Positions 12,821 to 20,069 of a DNA stretch of 64,000 bases are shown one piece after another. The first letter of the stretch is position 1; each line of letters starts with the position of its first letter. This DNA comes from Betaproteobacteria bacterium (GTDB taxonomy: Bacteria; Pseudomonadota; Gammaproteobacteria; Burkholderiales; Burkholderiaceae_A). The stretch is taken from contig VGHK01000003.1 of the NCBI GenBank assembly GCA_016868305.1, forward strand, positions 1 through 64,000, given 5' to 3'. The notes beneath the pieces are model-generated. The model had not been told where the DNA came from and ran no database searches. It saw only the letters and a program-made list of their open reading frames with translations. A program made the position numbers and the translations under genes.

Positions 12821-13369
12821 TTAGTCCCCCTGAAGGCTGCGCAGTCGATTCAGTGCGTCTTGGTTCCGGCGTCGACGACGTTCATGCTGCTGGCGCTCGG
12901 CGGGCTGCGAGGCTTTCGCGGTTGGTTCGGCAGTTTCGGGCTGCCCCTTATGCGTTGAGGGTGGCGCAGCAGGCGCACTCATGGCAATGGCCTGTTGGGG
13001 CGGTGTTGGCACCTGATCGGTGGGGGCCGAAGGCGCAGCTGACTGGTCTTGAGCTTCCAGATCCGGAAGGTCATCGGCCAGGGCGCCTTTGGGCAGGCCG
13101 ATGGGATTGAGGATTTTCGAAGACGTGCGGTCTCGGCTGTAGTGCACAGGCACTTTGGGCGCGGTCTTCATTCGGCGTGCGGAGGGCGCGCCCGCTCCGA
13201 CACCTGCTTGGGTCGGCGGTGCAGGGTCAGGCTGCCCGAGCCGCATCACCGACTCGGCGTCGAGCAGTCGAGGGGTCCATCCACGAGGGGGGGCTGCCAG
13301 ACTGTCTGCGCCCATAGAGAGCCGCAACTGGTTGAGGCCAGGGTGGTCCAGAAAGTTGCTGAGCTTCAT
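12821..13369 (-). CDS. Proline/alanine-rich protein, last gene of the ZorAB-kinase operon
   Basis: A 182-residue soluble protein beginning 9 bases after the ZorB-like stop, so clearly in the same transcript. The N-terminal 50 residues look structured (NFLDHPGLNQLRLSMGADSL). The middle is low-complexity, rich in Pro, Ala and Gln. The C-terminus is basic and helical (ERRRRRNQDALNRLRSLQGD). No signal peptide or membrane segment. I do not recognise a family. Low complexity and many Ser/Thr make it a conceivable substrate of the operon's kinase, but that is speculation. Confidence 0.6.
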   Translation of the reverse strand: MKLSNFLDHPGLNQLRLSMGADSLAAPPRGWTPRLLDAESVMRLGQPDPAPPTQAGVGAGAPSARRMKTAPKVPVHYSRDRTSSKILNPIGLPKGALADDLPDLEAQDQSAAPSAPTDQVPTPPQQAIAMSAPAAPPSTHKGQPETAEPTAKASQPAERQQHERRRRRNQDALNRLRSLQGD

Positions 13370-13378
13370 CGCGCGGTA

Positions 13379-14074
13379 TCAGTATGCGGGGGCTGCGATG
13401 GACCGTGCGATCTTCGCCAGCCGCTCATCCGCATTGGTAACGATTCGAAATTCCACCCGCTGCGAGGCCGCCTCGTCAATACGTTGTCCCTGGCTCAAGA
13501 TGGGCCGCGATGAGGAAAGGCCATTGGCGGTCAGGCGCTCAATAAGCCAGGCCTCTTGAGCCCTCGCGCTGGGCAGCTGCATGACATATTCCAATGTGGA
13601 GCGCGTTCGCGCCTGAGACAGGGCCATGTTCTTAAAATAGGCATCTAGCCGGGATGGCGCGGCAGACCAGAAGGTGGAGGTATGTCCTTCGATGCGAACC
13701 TCTTTCACCGTATCAATGAACTTCTCGTTGGTAAGAATTGCGAGATAGCGGGGAATGAAGTCTTTCAGGATGTTCTGAAAGAGCGGCCTGAGCTGGTCGG
13801 ATCCGGTACTGAAGAGAACTTCAGGATTCTTAAATCGGATTGTCATATCTCCCAGAAGCTCTGCATCCCATTCCTGAAAGTTTTCGGCAAACTCGCTCTG
13901 CAGGGCACGGTGCAGGTCTTCCCGCGTGATTTCATACTCTTTGACGATAAGGGTAGTGGTCTGCTCAACCCGCGTCATGTAGAGGGCCGCCAGCAGCAGA
14001 AAGACCATCATCAGGCCCATCATGAGGTCGCTTAGCGGAATCCAGTGGCTGTTGTTACCGGAGCTGTCTGACAT
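13379..14074 (-). CDS. ZorB-like MotB/OmpA-domain stator protein
   Basis: A 231-residue inner-membrane protein with a single N-terminal helix (about 13-33, IPLSDLMMGLMMVFLLLAAL) carrying an Asp at position 16, the place of the proton- or ion-carrying Asp of MotB and ZorB. A helical linker leads to an OmpA-like peptidoglycan-binding domain with VRIEGHTS, LSQARTRSTLEYVM and a late QRVEFRIV. This combination matches ZorB of Zorya systems better than flagellar MotB, and no flagellar genes are near. It follows the ZorA-like gene after 75 bases. Probable role: peptidoglycan-anchored ion-channel subunit of a membrane motor, with ZorA (family-based inference). Confidence 0.85.
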   Translation of the reverse strand: MSDSSGNNSHWIPLSDLMMGLMMVFLLLAALYMTRVEQTTTLIVKEYEITREDLHRALQSEFAENFQEWDAELLGDMTIRFKNPEVLFSTGSDQLRPLFQNILKDFIPRYLAILTNEKFIDTVKEVRIEGHTSTFWSAAPSRLDAYFKNMALSQARTRSTLEYVMQLPSARAQEAWLIERLTANGLSSSRPILSQGQRIDEAASQRVEFRIVTNADERLAKIARSIAAPAY

Positions 14075-14149: not shown

Positions 14150-15511
14150 TTAGATTTTCCGAGCCATCTGCACCACCTCGCGTAGCCGCTCGGTAAGGGG
14201 CAGGTAGTCTTCTACAAACCGGTTGCTAAGCGCAGCAAGCTGACCCGCCAGAGCCTCCAGGGCGTCGTTAAGCTCTTTTTGCAGGCCCTTATCGAGCGCT
14301 AACACCCCTTCTTTGATGACACGGGCATTGTCCTGCAGGCCTTTTTTGAGTTCGTCCTGGGCCTGGCTGATGACTTCGCTGATCTGCTTTCGGAAGTCTG
14401 CCTGGCTGAGCTGCATCTGCACCCCAAGGTTCTCCGTGGCCCTTGCCATGGCCTGCTGCACGCGGGCGAGCTCCTCTTCCTGGGTCTTTGCGGTGCTGGC
14501 GACAATCCCACGCAGCTCTTGGTTGGCACCCAGAATCTCACCGGCCATTTCGTCAGAGACTGCGATGATCTTGTCTCGGATCTGACCAAGGCCTTGTTCC
14601 ACCTGGGTGAGCATCTCACTGGCCTTCTGCGAGAAGGTAGGCGTTACCGCACTCATCTGACCGAGCACATCGGCAAGGGCGCGCTGCTGGGCGAGCAGCA
14701 TGTCGCGGCCATTATTTAAGAACTCGATCTGCTCGGCCAAGGCCTGGGCGACCTTCTCGAATTGTCCAGCACTGGCCACGATGGTCTGCAGCGTGGCCGC
14801 TGCCTGGGCCAGTTCGCCAGCGGCCTCTCGTTGGCGCGCCTGCAGCAGGTCGAGCTCGTCTTTGTACTGCTGCTGCCAGACCACGAGGCGCTCCACCGCA
14901 AGGTTGAGCTGTTTGAAGTTGTCGCCGAACTGACTGCTAAGCTTTTCGTTGAAGTCACGAATCACTGATTCGAGCGCCTGAACGATTGCCTTCTGGTTGT
15001 TCTCCACCATGTGGGTGGCAAAGCCCCGGAACTCGGCGATCAGGGCCTCAGACTGGGCGCTTGCCTCTTCACGACCGCCAGAAATCTGGCTGCTGAGGCT
15101 CTGGGGCTCTGGGCCGGTAATCGCCCGGCGCAGACCCTGCAGGGCCACGACCACATCGTTGAGACTGGCGTTTCCGGCGGGGCCGTCTTCTTCTTCTTCG
15201 ATCTCTTGGCGCACCTTACGAAACCGCTGGGCAAATCGCAGCGTGAGGGCGCCGAAGACGCCTGCGAGCGAGGCCCAGAATGCGGTACGGATGCCCCCCA
15301 GAAGGCTAGGCACACTAGACTGAATGTCGTTGGGGTTAAAGCCGAAGAGTGCCACGGTGATTCCGGTAAAGCAGCCGAGAATGCCCATGGTGGTAAGCAC
15401 CTCGGGGCCATGGACTACGCTGAACCGGTCGAACCGAATATGAAAGAAGAGGGTCACCAGAGCAATGCTGGCGATAAAGAGAATCTCGAGAAGCAGGGTG
15501 ACATTGGTCAT
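14150..15511 (-). CDS. ZorA-like MotA/ExbB-family protein with long helical tail
   Basis: A 453-residue protein with three N-terminal membrane helices (about 5-26, 38-58, 68-92). The second carries LTTMGILGCFTGITVALFGF and the third SVPSLLGGIRTAFWASLAG, the MotA/TolQ/ExbB channel core. From about residue 120 to the end it is almost entirely predicted helix rich in Ala, Gln, Glu and Leu, including QLNLAVERLVVWQQQYKDEL, a segment I associate with ZorA tails. Such cytoplasmic tails are what distinguish ZorA from ExbB. With the ZorB-like product it should form an ion-driven complex. No ZorC, ZorD or ZorE gene is nearby; upstream lie a kinase, phosphatase and vWA gene. Confidence 0.87.
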   Translation of the reverse strand: MTNVTLLLEILFIASIALVTLFFHIRFDRFSVVHGPEVLTTMGILGCFTGITVALFGFNPNDIQSSVPSLLGGIRTAFWASLAGVFGALTLRFAQRFRKVRQEIEEEEDGPAGNASLNDVVVALQGLRRAITGPEPQSLSSQISGGREEASAQSEALIAEFRGFATHMVENNQKAIVQALESVIRDFNEKLSSQFGDNFKQLNLAVERLVVWQQQYKDELDLLQARQREAAGELAQAAATLQTIVASAGQFEKVAQALAEQIEFLNNGRDMLLAQQRALADVLGQMSAVTPTFSQKASEMLTQVEQGLGQIRDKIIAVSDEMAGEILGANQELRGIVASTAKTQEEELARVQQAMARATENLGVQMQLSQADFRKQISEVISQAQDELKKGLQDNARVIKEGVLALDKGLQKELNDALEALAGQLAALSNRFVEDYLPLTERLREVVQMARKI

Positions 15512-15578: not shown

Positions 15579-17105
15579 TTAGGAACGTTTGATCTGCGCG
15601 AGGATCTGCTGGTTGCGATGTCGGGGCAGCCGGGTGGAGATAGCCCGCGTCTTAAGCCTTTGTTTGGCAGCCTGGTTATTGCCGGCAAGCCGGAAACGCG
15701 CCTCCTCCACGGGTATGCGGTGGATCTGCGCGGGGCTATTGACCACCAGGCTCGCCTCCCCGATACCCTGGGAGAAAGAAGGGTGCGAGAGATACTGAAT
15801 CGGCTGAACCACCTCGGTCACTGCCACCCACTGCCCCACCCAGGCATAGTTCGGTAAGAGCCTGCTATCGAGTCCAGGGGTTTCGAGGAGTTCCGGCAGA
15901 ATCTTCACCCGCACCACATTACCACTGGATAGCGCCTGGAAGTCGATGTAGATATAAGGCCGCAAGGCAAGCTCCAATCCGAACCGGGTCTTTCCGGCGC
16001 GCACCTCTACCACCTGGCCAATGAGTTCGACTCGCCGACCAACAAGCCGTGCCACCTTGGGGAAGCTTGCTGCGGCAACCACTTCAAATGATCCCAGGTA
16101 GACCTTCGGGGGTGGGGGCAGGGCCGATCGGGAGACAGCCTGCTCAGCGCTGTTAGGCTTGACAGGGCGGGCCGCAGCCAGATCTTTGACGGGGACATTT
16201 CCCCGATAAAAGTCCTCTGCGCGCGGTACCCGATCGATGGGGGCCATGCAGATGAGGGCGAACTGTTTGACTGGCACGCTCAGACTGGCAACCCGCGCGG
16301 CCATGCCGAACGTCTGTGAGGCAAGGGGGTCGGCAAAGTCGGTTCCGCGAAAGACCAGGCCCTCTTCATCGCTATAGGTGCGGTCGTAGATCTCGGGTAG
16401 AGCCTCCAGTAGGCGCAAAGACAGATCGAGCACAATGAAGGCAAAGTCGTCGAGGCGAAGGTTAAAAAAGCTTTCGTTACGCAGCGGATGCTGAAAGTTC
16501 ACATGCCCAAGCTCAGAGGCCTTTAGACTTGAGAGTTGGGGAACAAACATACCGTCATAGTCGATAAGGGTGAGGCTATCGGCCTCGGGGCTCACCAGTA
16601 TGTTTCCGAGCTGTATATCGCCATGGGCAATCTCAAGCCTGCGCAGGTCTGCGCAGAGGTCTCGCAGGGATAGCCGCAGCTGCCGGAGTTTGAGCGTATG
16701 TTTGTGATGAACAGCCAGATAGTCTCCCAGGGTCTGGCCTTTGGCCCAGGCCATCTTTAACAATGGCACCCGGTTGCCCTCCACCAGCATACCTCCGGGT
16801 TCGTAGTCAAAGGCCACGAAGGTCTCTCTTCCCAGGGTGCGGTTTGCCGCATGGGTTGCCTTTGCAATGGCGCTGTAGCGCTGTTCAATCTCTTTGGAAA
16901 CCCGCGTGAAGCAGCGCAATGCCAGGGCCTTGCCATGGGCCGTTGCCTTAAACACCAGTGCGAAGTTACCCGAACGTGCCCGTGGCATGCCCAGGGCGTT
17001 GGTCTCAATCTTTGCCTGATGTAGATCGGGGTCTGCGAATACCTGACGCGGTGGCTGCTGCAGCGCGCGCAGGTACTGCTCTAGGTTGGGCAGGGTGAGA
17101 GCCAT
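15579..17105 (-). CDS. TerY-P type protein kinase with C-terminal OB-like domain
   Basis: A 508-residue predicted cytoplasmic serine/threonine kinase. The glycine loop appears as RSGNFALVF (44-52). The catalytic loop is HGDIQLGN (161-168) with Asp 163 and Asn 168, and the DFG-equivalent is IDYDGMFVP (Asp 182). The HGDxQxGN and DYDGM forms are those of the TerY-P kinase group, not eukaryotic-type PknB. The usual VAIK lysine reads ALALRCF, so Arg 64 may replace it. Residues about 340-440 (RRVELIGQVVEVRAGKTRFG..., ...GQWVAVTEVVQ) look like an OB fold, as in TerY-P kinases. Its ATG overlaps the PP2C stop by one base (TAATG). Probable role: phosphorylating a partner, with the PP2C and vWA proteins as counterparts. 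Confidence 0.82.
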   Translation of the reverse strand: MALTLPNLEQYLRALQQPPRQVFADPDLHQAKIETNALGMPRARSGNFALVFKATAHGKALALRCFTRVSKEIEQRYSAIAKATHAANRTLGRETFVAFDYEPGGMLVEGNRVPLLKMAWAKGQTLGDYLAVHHKHTLKLRQLRLSLRDLCADLRRLEIAHGDIQLGNILVSPEADSLTLIDYDGMFVPQLSSLKASELGHVNFQHPLRNESFFNLRLDDFAFIVLDLSLRLLEALPEIYDRTYSDEEGLVFRGTDFADPLASQTFGMAARVASLSVPVKQFALICMAPIDRVPRAEDFYRGNVPVKDLAAARPVKPNSAEQAVSRSALPPPPKVYLGSFEVVAAASFPKVARLVGRRVELIGQVVEVRAGKTRFGLELALRPYIYIDFQALSSGNVVRVKILPELLETPGLDSRLLPNYAWVGQWVAVTEVVQPIQYLSHPSFSQGIGEASLVVNSPAQIHRIPVEEARFRLAGNNQAAKQRLKTRAISTRLPRHRNQQILAQIKRS

Positions 17106-17851
17106 TATCCGAGGTCTACGATAGCCAGGGTGGTATCGTCTTTGCGCATCTTCCCTTGCAATCGCGACTGGGTGATCCAGTAGCGAAAATCGTTCTCAGG
17201 GAGGTTTAATGCCTTTTCACACTGCGTCCATTCTCCCGCTATGGCAAGCTCCAGGGCATAGCAGCCCAGGGCATCGGTCATGAGGAACATCCGCTGTCCC
17301 AGGACTTCGCTTTTGGGCAGTCGTCTGACCGACCAACGGCTGCGCTCCCGTTCAAAGACCACACTGTCGCCGCGTGCATCGGAAGACAAAAGCACCGGGT
17401 GCTTTTTGAATTCATCCGGGGTCTGCAGCACATGACTCTGAATCTGGCCCCGGGGATCCTTCCAAAGCGCCACGGTGTCTCCAATGCCAAGGACCAGAAC
17501 GTCTGGGCCGGCATCGACCAGACCGAGAATACTGGAGAAATTGCCCCTATCGAAGGCTGCCTGCTGCGACCAGGACAGCTTCCTCTGGGCAACGATTCCC
17601 AGAAACATTGTGCGCGCCTGTATAACGATGCTGCGAATGGCGGTGTCGTTAAGCGCAGGTGTTGGAGTCTGGGAGAAGGTCTGGGTAAAGACCTGACAGA
17701 GCAGCCTTCCCCAGGTACGCGAATCAAACGATTCGCTGGCGCCATCGCTCATGGCACATGCAAACCCTTCCGTCGTCCAGAAAAAGAAGTCATCGTTGGC
17801 GTCGGGGTAATCGGGATCCTTCGGGAAGGAGAGGCTTCGAACTACCCGCAT
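17105..17851 (-). CDS. PP2C-family protein phosphatase
   Basis: A 248-residue metal-dependent Ser/Thr phosphatase. Metal-binding and core motifs are visible: ANDDFF (Asp 20/21), AMSDGASESFDS (Asp 36), LGIGDTVAL, LMTDALGCY (equivalent of the SDG motif) and the C-terminal KDDTTLAIVDLG (Asp 238/239). It is a minimal single-domain enzyme without membrane segments. It starts 6 bases after the vWA gene and its stop overlaps the kinase start, so the three are tightly coupled. In TerY-P systems the phosphatase opposes the kinase. A T6SS PppA role is less likely, since the kinase type and neighbours differ and the tss genes lie 38 kb away. Confidence 0.88.
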   Translation of the reverse strand: MRVVRSLSFPKDPDYPDANDDFFFWTTEGFACAMSDGASESFDSRTWGRLLCQVFTQTFSQTPTPALNDTAIRSIVIQARTMFLGIVAQRKLSWSQQAAFDRGNFSSILGLVDAGPDVLVLGIGDTVALWKDPRGQIQSHVLQTPDEFKKHPVLLSSDARGDSVVFERERSRWSVRRLPKSEVLGQRMFLMTDALGCYALELAIAGEWTQCEKALNLPENDFRYWITQSRLQGKMRKDDTTLAIVDLG

Positions 17852-17857
17852 AGAGAC

Positions 17858-18706
17858 TTAACGCAGCATCAGGGATTGCGAAGAGGCTCGGGTGCCAATA
17901 TCGAAAAATTCCACTACCTCGACTGGCTCGACGTTGAAAAAAAAGCCCCGGGCATGGGGTGACACCTGATAGCCCTTTTCCCTGGCGGCCTGGGCAACCG
18001 CAGCGGGAAGCTCGCTCGACATGCGAAACAAGCTCTTGCCGTAAGGGTCGATTACATGGTTTTCATCGTCTGCAAACTTAAGCGGACTGCCCTTGGCCTG
18101 ACCGCTATGCAGGTTGAACAGCAGGATGTCGCCATCATCGGTACCAATCTGTCGCAGCTGCTCTGCCACCGGCTCTGGGTCGCCATCGGAGGGCTCGCCA
18201 TCGGTGACATGCAAGACCGTGGGGGGATAAGACTCGGCATGCTCATCGCACCAGACCGCTAGAGACTCCGCAGCGATACGGAGCGCCTTGCGCATAGGGG
18301 TGCCGCCATCGGCCTGGGGCGTAAACCAGATCGGAAACTGAATGGTCTGTTCGATAACTCCGCCCGCGCCGTCGGGAACCTTCTGTCGCCTTTGCTCAAT
18401 CGAAATCGGACTCTTCTCAAAGTCAGAAATCGGGTGAAACATTTTTGATGCAAAGGGGCCTTTCAAGGCATTTCCTACCTGTGCCCCCCCGTAGCCAATG
18501 GCACCGATTTCAAAGTAGTCGCGAACGCCCTCAGACTTTGAGCAACGGGCAATGAGGTTGACCACCACCCGGTTTAAGGCGTCGCTGACAAACTGGGCGC
18601 GCGACATCTTGGTCTGGCCTACAGGGTCTGCCATGGACCCAGACTGGTCTATGAGGAATAAAAACGCCGTAGGACTGGTACGACTAATTTCGGCGCTGTA
18701 GCTCAT
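17858..18706 (-). CDS. vWA-domain protein (TerY-like)
   Basis: A 282-residue cytoplasmic von Willebrand A domain protein with a complete metal-ion-dependent adhesion site: DQSGS (Asp 20, Ser 22, Ser 24), the DGGTPM threonine, and VTDGEPSDGDPE carrying the third-site Asp. Such domains mediate regulated, Mg-dependent protein contacts. The start is the ATG behind TAGGAG with seven bases of spacing. It lies 17 bases after the membrane-anchored Pro-rich gene and 6 bases before the PP2C gene. Together with the phosphatase and kinase it makes the TerY-P triad described in comparative work on Ter stress systems and reported among candidate phage-defence operons. Confidence 0.87.
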   Translation of the reverse strand: MSYSAEISRTSPTAFLFLIDQSGSMADPVGQTKMSRAQFVSDALNRVVVNLIARCSKSEGVRDYFEIGAIGYGGAQVGNALKGPFASKMFHPISDFEKSPISIEQRRQKVPDGAGGVIEQTIQFPIWFTPQADGGTPMRKALRIAAESLAVWCDEHAESYPPTVLHVTDGEPSDGDPEPVAEQLRQIGTDDGDILLFNLHSGQAKGSPLKFADDENHVIDPYGKSLFRMSSELPAAVAQAAREKGYQVSPHARGFFFNVEPVEVVEFFDIGTRASSQSLMLR

Positions 18707-18723: not shown

Positions 18724-19587
18724 TTATTTCTTAAATGTCTCACGCAGACTTTCCGAAATCGCCTTCGCGCGCTCCTCCATGCTGTCACAGTTCGCGGTGA
18801 GGGTGACCTCAGGCTTTACAGGAATCGAGCCCGTGTCGTAGTGGAAGTCTGGAAACCGGGCATTGGCGAGAAGCTTGATGCGCTGATTGGGCAGTGCCTG
18901 AAGGCTGGCCTTGCCATCGGCGAATTCCGCGGTTGGCCCGTCTGGCATCACCTTTGCCATGAATGCGCGCTCGTGAAAGGGGCATTCATTAATGAGGGTG
19001 ACCGAGACCCTGATGGGCTGGGGCGGGGCGACAACCTTCGAGAACAGGCCGATTGCTGCCTTGGCAGGCTCTGTTTCCAATAGACGCGTGAGGTTAAATC
19101 CCAGCCAGATGACGGCGACGGTTGCTGAGACTGCGCCTAAGGCTATCCCCCAGTTGCGAAGGCGGGTAACCGGATCGGAGGGCTCCTCAGGCGGTACCCA
19201 GAGTACCTTTGCCCTGCGCGGTGCATCCTCGTCTTCCAGGGGTGGGCTAAGCGGCGCACCGCCTGCCATGGGGTTGGCATCGTAGGGCGGCGCAGGGTAG
19301 GGGTCCCAAAGGTCTTCTCCAGCACTCGGGCCGCTCGTACTAGCCGCGGTTTTAGACCCTTCGTTGTCTGCCTCGGGAGGCTCAAACCAGTCGGCGCCCC
19401 GGGCAGACTGGGATGCCCTTGGCTTTTTGGTCGCACCCGGTGGAAGCGCCTGCGGCGGGATGGGGGGAAGATCGGGCTGAGATGCTACCGGGCCAGAGGT
19501 GGCCGCCGCGGGCGCGCCGGGCACGACGGGAACGGCAGACTCTTGTTCCGCAGCAATCTCTTCCAGGCTTCTTGGTTTGATTACCAT
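18724..19587 (-). CDS. Single-pass membrane protein with Pro-rich N-terminus, first gene of the ZorAB-kinase operon
   Basis: A 287-residue protein of unknown family. Residues 1-145 are disordered, rich in Pro, Ala, Ser and acidic residues. One membrane helix spans about 146-165 (WGIALGAVSATVAVIWLGF). The rest, about 190-270, is a small beta-rich domain with two cysteines (202 and 267) that could form a disulphide outside the cytoplasm, followed by a helical tail. This topology suggests a sensor or anchor linking the periplasm to the cytoplasmic kinase, phosphatase and vWA proteins (inference). It opens the operon; the divergent adhesin-E-like gene begins 83 bases away, so the promoter must lie in that gap. 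Confidence 0.7.
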   Translation of the reverse strand: MVIKPRSLEEIAAEQESAVPVVPGAPAAATSGPVASQPDLPPIPPQALPPGATKKPRASQSARGADWFEPPEADNEGSKTAASTSGPSAGEDLWDPYPAPPYDANPMAGGAPLSPPLEDEDAPRRAKVLWVPPEEPSDPVTRLRNWGIALGAVSATVAVIWLGFNLTRLLETEPAKAAIGLFSKVVAPPQPIRVSVTLINECPFHERAFMAKVMPDGPTAEFADGKASLQALPNQRIKLLANARFPDFHYDTGSIPVKPEVTLTANCDSMEERAKAISESLRETFKK

Positions 19588-19670
19588 CGCCCAATATTAA
19601 CTGCTTACGACTCAATATCTGCGTACAACTGTCGATGCAAAATTATGGAAAGTTACCCGATTGCCCTGAA

Positions 19671-20069
19671 ATGCTGACGCGATTACGCCTCGCAACCCTT
19701 CTCTTTGTTGGCCTTTTCCTGGCGCCCTTAGGCACGGAGGCTGCCTACCTAATTCTTGAGCGTAACCGGTATAAGGTTGCCTACGTGGATCTTGCCACCG
19801 TTCAGGTAACCGAAAAGGGCCGAAAGTTTCTCGTGATTCACGACTTTTTAAACCCTGACCTGCTCGGTCACATGTCCCGGCGGCATGTGGAGGAGATTGA
19901 CTGTCTGGGAAAGCGTGCGCGCACGGTGGCCTATGCCTTGTTTACTGGCAAACGCGGAACGGGCAGGTCAAGCCTGGGCGAGGCCGGGGGCGAGACCACC
20001 CCCTGGAAGCCGATTCGTGGCAAGCAGGACCCTATGGAAGTCGCCCGTGCCCGTTTGTGCCCGGTCTAA
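19671..20069 (+). CDS. Secreted surface-adhesin-E-like protein
   Basis: A 132-residue exported protein. The ATG at 19671 directly begins a signal peptide (RLRLATLLFVGLFLAPLGTEA); the ORF-track start 36 bases upstream adds polar residues before it. The mature part has YKVAYVDLATVQVTEKG, VIHDFL and EEIDCLGKRARTVAY, the pattern of the small beta-rich family related to Haemophilus surface adhesin protein E, where a conserved Cys pair closes the fold (Cys in EIDCLG and near the C-terminal LCPV). Many members have no known adhesin role. Divergent from the kinase/ZorAB-type operon; no link is implied. Confidence 0.62.
   Translation: MLTRLRLATLLFVGLFLAPLGTEAAYLILERNRYKVAYVDLATVQVTEKGRKFLVIHDFLNPDLLGHMSRRHVEEIDCLGKRARTVAYALFTGKRGTGRSSLGEAGGETTPWKPIRGKQDPMEVARARLCPV

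What the first reader, a model, noticed from the sequence alone, without database searches (positions are those of the whole stretch)
14150..15511. ZorA-like protein with a helical tail of over 300 residues
Three-helix MotA/ExbB core (to about residue 92) is followed by an almost wholly helical Ala/Gln/Glu-rich tail to residue 453, including VVWQQQYKDEL. ExbB, TolQ and MotA lack this. In Zorya the cytoplasmic ZorA tail passes the signal to effectors. With no Zorya effector gene nearby, this tail might contact the kinase, phosphatase or vWA protein.
Basis: partly seen in the sequence, partly recalled or inferred. Interest (0 to 1): 0.55.

Follow-up and report, generated by a model that had tools for sequence, protein, structure and literature searches.

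The report
Phage-defence motor wired to kinase triad
The gene encodes a ZorA subunit of a known bacterial anti-phage membrane motor (Zorya type II), but here the motor has lost its usual DNA-nicking partner ZorE; it is followed by a small protein that keeps only ZorE's first 20 amino acids and is preceded by a second known defence module (kinase, phosphatase, vWA protein), so the motor may report to a signalling switch instead of a nuclease.

Summary
14150-15511 (-) encodes a 453-aa protein with a three-helix core and a ~350-residue helical tail. It is a ZorA of the Zorya II family: PADLOC ZorA2 2e-129, ZorB2 1e-89 for the next gene, and E 8.5e-59 to the solved Zorya II ZorA 8VVI. The long tail is therefore normal for the family, and its conserved segments (WQQQYKDEL; LSxxFVxDYxPLTERLREVV) are shared with ZorE-bearing Zorya II.

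The surroundings are unusual. ZorE is absent from the locus and genome. Directly upstream lies a TerY-P triad (vWA, PP2C, STK-OB kinase). Directly downstream of zorB is a 182-aa protein (g7) whose N-terminus matches the N-terminus of ZorE but which lacks the HNH nuclease. The C-terminus of some g7 proteins resembles that of the neighbouring kinase. In 26 genomes of the family, ZorAB occurs in 7, always directly 3' of TerY-P; at the same sites others carry TerY-P alone. ZorAB-g7 forms one clade nested inside ZorE-type Zorya II.

Most likely this is a Zorya II motor whose ZorE was replaced by a ZorE-N-terminus adaptor, probably feeding TerY-P. The motif matches are computed; the wiring is inferred. 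Two genomes carry ZorAB-g7 without detected TerY-P.

The parts
14150..15511 (-). zorA (g5), 453 aa: MotA/ExbB-type core plus long helical cytoplasmic tail
   Evidence: PADLOC ZorA2 2.2e-129 full length; 8VVI ZorA E 8.5e-59
15236..15511 (-). ZorA three-helix membrane core, residues 1-92
   Evidence: hydrophobic segments; alignment of core
14153..15199 (-). ZorA helical tail, residues 105-453
   Evidence: five prolines, hydrophobic period 3.66
14840..15034 (-). tail segment 1, residues 160-224, ...VIRDFN..L..QFG.NFK.LN...WQQQYKDEL, conserved in nearly all Zorya II ZorA examined
14171..14242 (-). tail-end motif QLAALSNRFVEDYLPLTERLREVV, residues 424-447; varies together with the ZorE/g7 N-terminal motif
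13379..14074 (-). zorB (g6), 231 aa: ion-channel Asp16 (LSDLMMGLMMVF) and OmpA-type peptidoglycan-binding domain
   Evidence: PADLOC ZorB2 1.3e-89; 8VVI ZorB 3.2e-55; OmpA
12821..13369 (-). g7, 182 aa, no Pfam/PADLOC family at the thresholds used: ZorE-type N-terminal motif plus low-complexity linker plus kinase-like C-terminal motif; no HNH domain
13307..13369 (-). g7 residues 1-21 MKLSNFLDHPGLNQLRLSMGA, matching the ZorE N-terminus
   Evidence: ZorE N-termini 28.6-34.1 bits against 4.7 for the best unrelated protein of 423
12836..12868 (-). g7 C-terminal motif RNQDALNRLRS, like the C-terminus of the STK-OB kinase
   Evidence: 21.2 bits against 10.3 for the best unrelated of 472
15579..17105 (-). 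STK-OB kinase (g4), 508 aa: HGDIQLGN and DYDG motifs kept, OB-fold C-terminal part
   Evidence: PADLOC STK_OB 1.9e-127; motifs
15585..15617 (-). kinase C-terminal motif RNQQILAQIKR
17105..17851 (-). PP2C phosphatase (g3), 248 aa; conserved SDGAS, GD and DDTT motifs
   Evidence: PADLOC PP2C 2.2e-46; Pfam PP2C_2 8e-9
17858..18706 (-). TerY-type vWA protein (g2), 282 aa; MIDAS DQSGS, GGTP, TDG kept
   Evidence: PADLOC TerY 9.1e-125
18724..19587 (-). g1, 287 aa single-pass membrane protein (TM 146-167), linked to TerY-P in at least four genomes of the window's own genus
   Evidence: 30-45% identity in L084, L085, L086; TM

Best explanation
The protein is ZorA of a Zorya II-family motor whose effector ZorE has been replaced. 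ZorA and ZorB form the usual 5:2 ion-driven complex (by homology to 8VVI): ZorB binds peptidoglycan, and ion flow rotates the ZorA tail bundle when the envelope is disturbed by a phage (as described for Zorya II, PMC11890865). In ordinary Zorya II the motor then recruits the HNH nickase ZorE to the membrane. Here the gene after zorB makes g7, which keeps ZorE's N-terminal ~20 residues, proposed here to be the element that docks on the conserved end of the ZorA tail, and has a disordered linker in place of the nuclease. In the window and some relatives the other end of g7 carries the same short C-terminal motif as the TerY-P kinase encoded upstream, so g7 is proposed to bring the kinase/phosphatase/vWA switch, or whatever binds the kinase C-terminus, to the activated motor. 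Shown by sequence: family membership, loss of ZorE, the N-terminal motif match, the C-terminal motif match in three g7 proteins, conserved gene order, and gain or loss of zorA-zorB-g7 as a unit next to TerY-P. Inferred: docking to the ZorA tail, the bridge to TerY-P, and the defence output.
For: Family. ZorE is absent from the genome, while the same search rings in the E. coli control. ZorE directly follows zorB in all 25 other full-length Zorya II loci where the downstream gene could be read. g7 follows zorB in all nine non-ZorE loci of this clade (in L008 only its first 67 codons before the contig end). A 20-residue profile of the g7 N-terminus scores ZorE N-termini of the nearest ZorE systems at 28.6-34.1 bits (10.1 for L060) against 4.7 for the best unrelated of 423 proteins. 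The ZorA tail-end motif and the ZorE N-terminal motif weaken together (Spearman 0.62, p 0.003, n=20, not corrected for kinship; E. coli and Psychrobacter fit). Kinase C-terminal profile: g7 of window, L009, L011 score 20.7-24.7 bits against 10.3 for the best unrelated of 472. All 26 family genomes: TerY-P in 12, ZorAB in 7, all 7 directly 3' of the kinase gene (chance ~0.001 by hypergeometric worked by hand, kinship ignored). At the same chromosomal sites L084, L086 and L088 have TerY-P without zorA-zorB-g7, flanking genes kept. Tree: nine g7-type ZorAB are one clade (100/99), sister to ZorE-bearing L015/L016/L052 (99/99). [quoted passage not shown]
Against: L014 and L017 carry ZorAB-g7 next to a tRNA-Lys gene, and no TerY-type vWA was found in those genomes (MAGs of unknown completeness); their g7 lacks the kinase-like motif, so ZorAB-g7 can apparently exist without TerY-P. 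The C-terminal motif is absent from g7 of L010 and L013 and not visible in L008 (contig end) or L012. TerY-P occurs without ZorAB in five family genomes and in all four more distant loci read, so it does not need the motor. Motif tests were chosen after seeing the similarity. No complex could be modelled.
Confidence: 0.5

Rival explanations
1. ZorAB-g7 and TerY-P are two independent defence cassettes sharing a defence hot spot and perhaps a promoter. g7 is the third component of its own three-gene Zorya variant, recruiting a host factor or acting itself, and TerY-P is the known stand-alone system.
For: ZorAB-g7 without detected TerY-P in L014/L017; TerY-P without ZorAB in five family genomes and four distant ones; TerY-P is reported as stand-alone antiphage defence (PMC11090510 citing Gao et al. 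2020; PMC10889362).
Against: Within the family ZorAB-g7 is never apart from TerY-P (7 of 7, same order and strand). g7 shares the kinase C-terminal motif in three TerY-P-linked loci and in neither unlinked one.
Confidence: 0.35
2. The ZorA tail itself contacts the kinase, PP2C or vWA protein directly, without g7.
For: Gene order is conserved and the kinase and ZorA genes are neighbours; the ZorA tail is known to be needed for defence in Zorya I and II (PMC11890865).
Against: The most conserved tail segments are shared with ZorE-bearing Zorya II and with L014/L017, where no TerY-P was detected, so no tail feature specific to TerY-P was found; g7, with ZorE's N-terminus, offers a simpler link.
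Confidence: 0.1
3. g7 is only a decaying remnant of ZorE (nuclease lost) and the ZorAB complex is a relic or has a non-defence role.
For: g7 is short, variable in length and rich in low-complexity sequence; zorA-zorB-g7 is absent at the same site in several relatives.
Against: g7 is kept in all nine loci with a conserved N-terminus and, in most, a second conserved motif YSRD....KILHP; ZorA and ZorB keep long open frames, the channel Asp and the peptidoglycan-binding domain. A relic would not be expected to keep open, conserved genes across several genera.
Confidence: 0.05

Closest known systems
Zorya type II (ZorA-ZorB-ZorE)
   Same: ZorA and ZorB belong to the same families (PADLOC ZorA2/ZorB2; 8VVI homologues), including tail segments, channel Asp and OmpA domain
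   Different: No ZorE nuclease in locus or genome; g7 with only ZorE's N-terminal motif in its place; TerY-P triad directly upstream
TerY-P defence triad with STK-OB kinase (Gao et al. 2020, as cited in PMC11090510; PMC10889362)
   Same: vWA (TerY), PP2C and STK-OB in the same order, with catalytic and MIDAS motifs kept
   Different: Here followed by zorA-zorB-g7 in seven genomes; g1 membrane protein added in the window's genus
Zorya type I (ZorABCD) and type III (ZorABFG)
   Same: ZorAB motor with long ZorA tail
   Different: Sequence far from type I and III models (best ZorA1 4e-9, ZorA3 0.15); no ZorC, ZorD, ZorF or ZorG recognised among the seven proteins
ExbB/TolQ/MotA
   Same: Three-helix proton-channel core
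   Different: PF01618 below cut-off; long tail; four ordinary paralogues exist elsewhere in the genome

Membership tests
ZorA2 (Zorya II ZorA protein family) | Full-length similarity to ZorA2 models or solved ZorA2, beyond the MotA core | tested here: met
   PADLOC PDLC00639 residues 7-452, 2.2e-129; 8VVI E 8.5e-59 including the tail end
ZorA2 (Zorya II ZorA protein family) | NCBIfam equivalog cut-off of E. coli-type ZorA2/ZorB2 | tested here: not met
   118.9 against 700 bits for ZorA2, 193 against 400 for ZorB2: same family, not an equivalog of the E. coli proteins
ZorA2 (Zorya II ZorA protein family) | Long helical cytoplasmic tail | tested here: met
   composition and period 3.66; helices in a low-confidence model
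Zorya type II system | ZorE HNH nickase encoded with zorAB | tested here: not met
   no ZorE in locus or genome (positive control E. coli)
Zorya type II system | ZorB with channel Asp and peptidoglycan-binding OmpA domain | tested here: met
Zorya type I / type III | ZorC+ZorD or ZorF+ZorG in the operon | tested here: not met
   no such hit among the seven proteins
ExbB/TolQ/MotA | PF01618 above gathering cut-off; no long C-terminal tail | tested here: not met
   20.5 against 22.9 bits; tail present
TerY-P (STK-OB) triad | Adjacent TerY-vWA, PP2C and STK-OB kinase with intact motifs | tested here: met
TerY-P (STK-OB) triad | Stand-alone antiphage activity | not testable with these tools
   reported for other members (PMC11090510, PMC10889362)
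ZorE | HNH nuclease domain (for g7) | tested here: not met
   no Pfam or PADLOC hit for g7; only the N-terminal motif is shared

The most novel reading that the evidence does not exclude
A new Zorya variant in which the envelope-sensing ZorAB motor drives a protein-phosphorylation switch (TerY-P) through an adaptor that reuses ZorE's ZorA-docking peptide at one end and a copy of the kinase's C-terminal motif at the other: two independently known defence systems joined by a two-ended linker protein.
Probability: 0.38. Interest if true: 0.8.

Novelty: new variant of a known kind. Interest (0 to 1): 0.55.

Why it matters
How the ZorA tail hands its signal to effectors is not settled in the papers read here. 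The comparison gives a testable answer: a ~20-residue N-terminal motif common to ZorE and g7, whose strength follows the conserved end of the ZorA tail, is the likely docking element. It also suggests that Zorya motors are output-neutral and can be re-plugged from a nuclease to a kinase/phosphatase switch, and it offers a possible sensor for TerY-P in this lineage. No paper found in the searched library describes ZorAB with TerY-P as one operon (most subscription papers are not held).

Tried and rejected
ExbB/TolQ/MotA placement: rejected. Tail specific to TerY-P: rejected, since conserved segments are shared with ZorE systems. Downstream genes of relatives as hidden effectors (DUF502, PepN-like M1 peptidase, PQQ protein): housekeeping or shared with TerY-P-only genomes. 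A second g7 motif (YSRD....KILHP) resembles ZorE's YPRDL...KPLHT but not above background (9-10 bits against 10.4): not claimed. STK-OB and ZorAB together outside this family: not found in ~400 genomes of the phylum, plasmids or viral contigs. A ZorB-only tree was spoiled by a wrongly framed L052 sequence and was redone with ZorA+ZorB. A tRNA scan of L014/L017 found nothing because the tRNA genes are cut by the contig end; they were read by eye.

Full report
Observation. The ORF at 14150-15511 (-) encodes 453 residues. The first ~92 residues are a three-helix MotA/ExbB-type core; the tail has five prolines in 349 residues and a hydrophobic period of 3.66 residues that none of 500 shuffles reached. 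An AlphaFold2 model is helical almost throughout but of low confidence.

Identity. PADLOC calls the protein ZorA2 over its whole length at 2.2e-129 and the next protein ZorB2 at 1.3e-89. Against solved structures it matches the type II ZorA of Sulfuricurvum kujiense, 8VVI, at 8.5e-59, including the tail end, and its neighbour matches 8VVI ZorB at 3.2e-55. NCBI's stricter equivalog cut-offs for E. coli ZorA2 and ZorB2 are not reached. The same genome holds four ordinary MotA_ExbB proteins at 92-137 bits; this one lies below the family cut-off. So it is a divergent ZorA2, and the long tail is what that family has: in 8VVI residues 100-378 are the tail (PMC11890865).

Operon. On the minus strand, in order: g1 (287 aa, one membrane helix), vWA/TerY, PP2C, STK-OB kinase, ZorA, ZorB, g7 (182 aa); gaps are at most 75 bases and no promoter-like site lies between the genes (the only hit is inside zorA, and the scan covers sigma-70-type sites only). 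PADLOC assigns TerY 9e-125, PP2C 2e-46 and STK_OB 2e-127: the triad published as the TerY-P-like defence system with an OB-fold kinase (PMC11090510). MIDAS, PP2C and kinase motifs are intact.

Missing effector. No ZorE is found in the genome, with E. coli as positive control. In every other full-length Zorya II locus whose downstream gene could be read (25 loci from genomes, plasmids and viral contigs), ZorE follows ZorB directly. The exceptions are this clade and two phage contigs with short, reversed ZorB-ZorA pairs (L109, L117).

g7. In the nine non-ZorE loci of this clade zorB is followed by a small gene with a conserved start, MK[LI]xxFxxxxxLNxLRxxMxA (L008 is cut by the contig end). A profile of those 20 residues scores the N-termini of ZorE from the nearest ZorE systems at 28.6-34.1 bits (10.1 for L060); the best unrelated protein of 423 gets 4.7. 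g7 has no HNH domain. ZorE with a degenerate N-terminus (for example E. coli) goes with a degenerate ZorA tail end, and intact with intact (Spearman 0.62, n=20, p 0.003). Kinship inflates this figure, but it fits docking of the motif on the tail end. The C-termini of g7 from the window, L009 and L011 match the C-terminus of this family's STK-OB kinases (20.7-24.7 bits against 10.3 for the best unrelated of 472). Both profiles were built after the resemblance had been noticed.

Linkage. All 26 held genomes of the family were searched: TerY-P kinase in 12, ZorAB in 7, all 7 directly 3' of the kinase in the same order. The chromosomal site is the same with and without ZorAB: L084 and L086 have g1-vWA-PP2C-kinase followed directly by the gene that in the window lies beyond g7, and L088 has the triad followed directly by a ~198-aa gene in the place of the DUF502 gene that in L009-L011 lies beyond g7. 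On a tree of the triad the presence of ZorAB changes at least four times, so the three genes come and go as a unit while TerY-P stays. Two MAG contigs (L014, L017) carry ZorAB-g7 beside a tRNA-Lys gene; no TerY-type vWA was detected in those genomes, and their g7 lacks the kinase-like end.

Evolution. On a ZorA+ZorB tree rooted by type I sequences, the nine g7-type pairs form one clade (100/99) next to ZorE-bearing L015, L016 and L052 (99/99), inside ZorE-bearing Zorya II. The parsimonious reading is one replacement of ZorE by g7.

Mechanism. ZorE in known Zorya II is directed to the membrane by ZorAB only during infection (PMC11890865). The simplest reading is that ZorE's N-terminal motif is the docking element and that g7 keeps it while carrying a different load. 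In the TerY-P-linked loci that load may be the TerY-P switch. I put the integrated model at 0.5, the two-cassette rival at 0.35, direct tail-enzyme contact at 0.1 and decay at 0.05.

Limits. The genomes are mostly metagenome-assembled; organism names are withheld for most; no complexes could be predicted; the literature held is open-access only.

Noticed in passing
L109:7977-9463 and L117:7565-9037: Two viral contigs carry a reversed zorB-zorA pair with a short ZorA (256-258 aa) and no ZorE, in similar gene surroundings.
   Followed up: no
L062:3-8319 and L063:1508-8935: A Zorya II set (ZorA-ZorB-ZorE) is followed, after a 112-aa ORF, by a Zorya I-like ZorA (862 aa) and ZorB; in L062 a ZorC-like gene comes next: two Zorya types in tandem.
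   Followed up: partly
L089, L105, L106 kinase C-termini: More distant STK-OB kinases end in a membrane helix or an aromatic amphipathic helix instead of the NQxIIxxIK motif, suggesting the C-terminus places the kinase.
   Followed up: partly
L014:1-50, L017:1-71: ZorAB-g7 lies directly downstream of a tRNA-Lys gene in two MAG contigs, a typical insertion site.
   Followed up: partly
window 18724-19587: g1, a single-pass membrane protein with a proline-rich N-terminal half and a conserved C-terminal half, accompanies TerY-P in at least four genomes of the window's genus, with or without ZorAB.
   Followed up: partly
window 19635-20069: An Adhesin_E (PF16747) gene lies upstream of the operon; a homologue sits upstream of the triad in L084 and another Adhesin_E gene in L009.
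   Followed up: no
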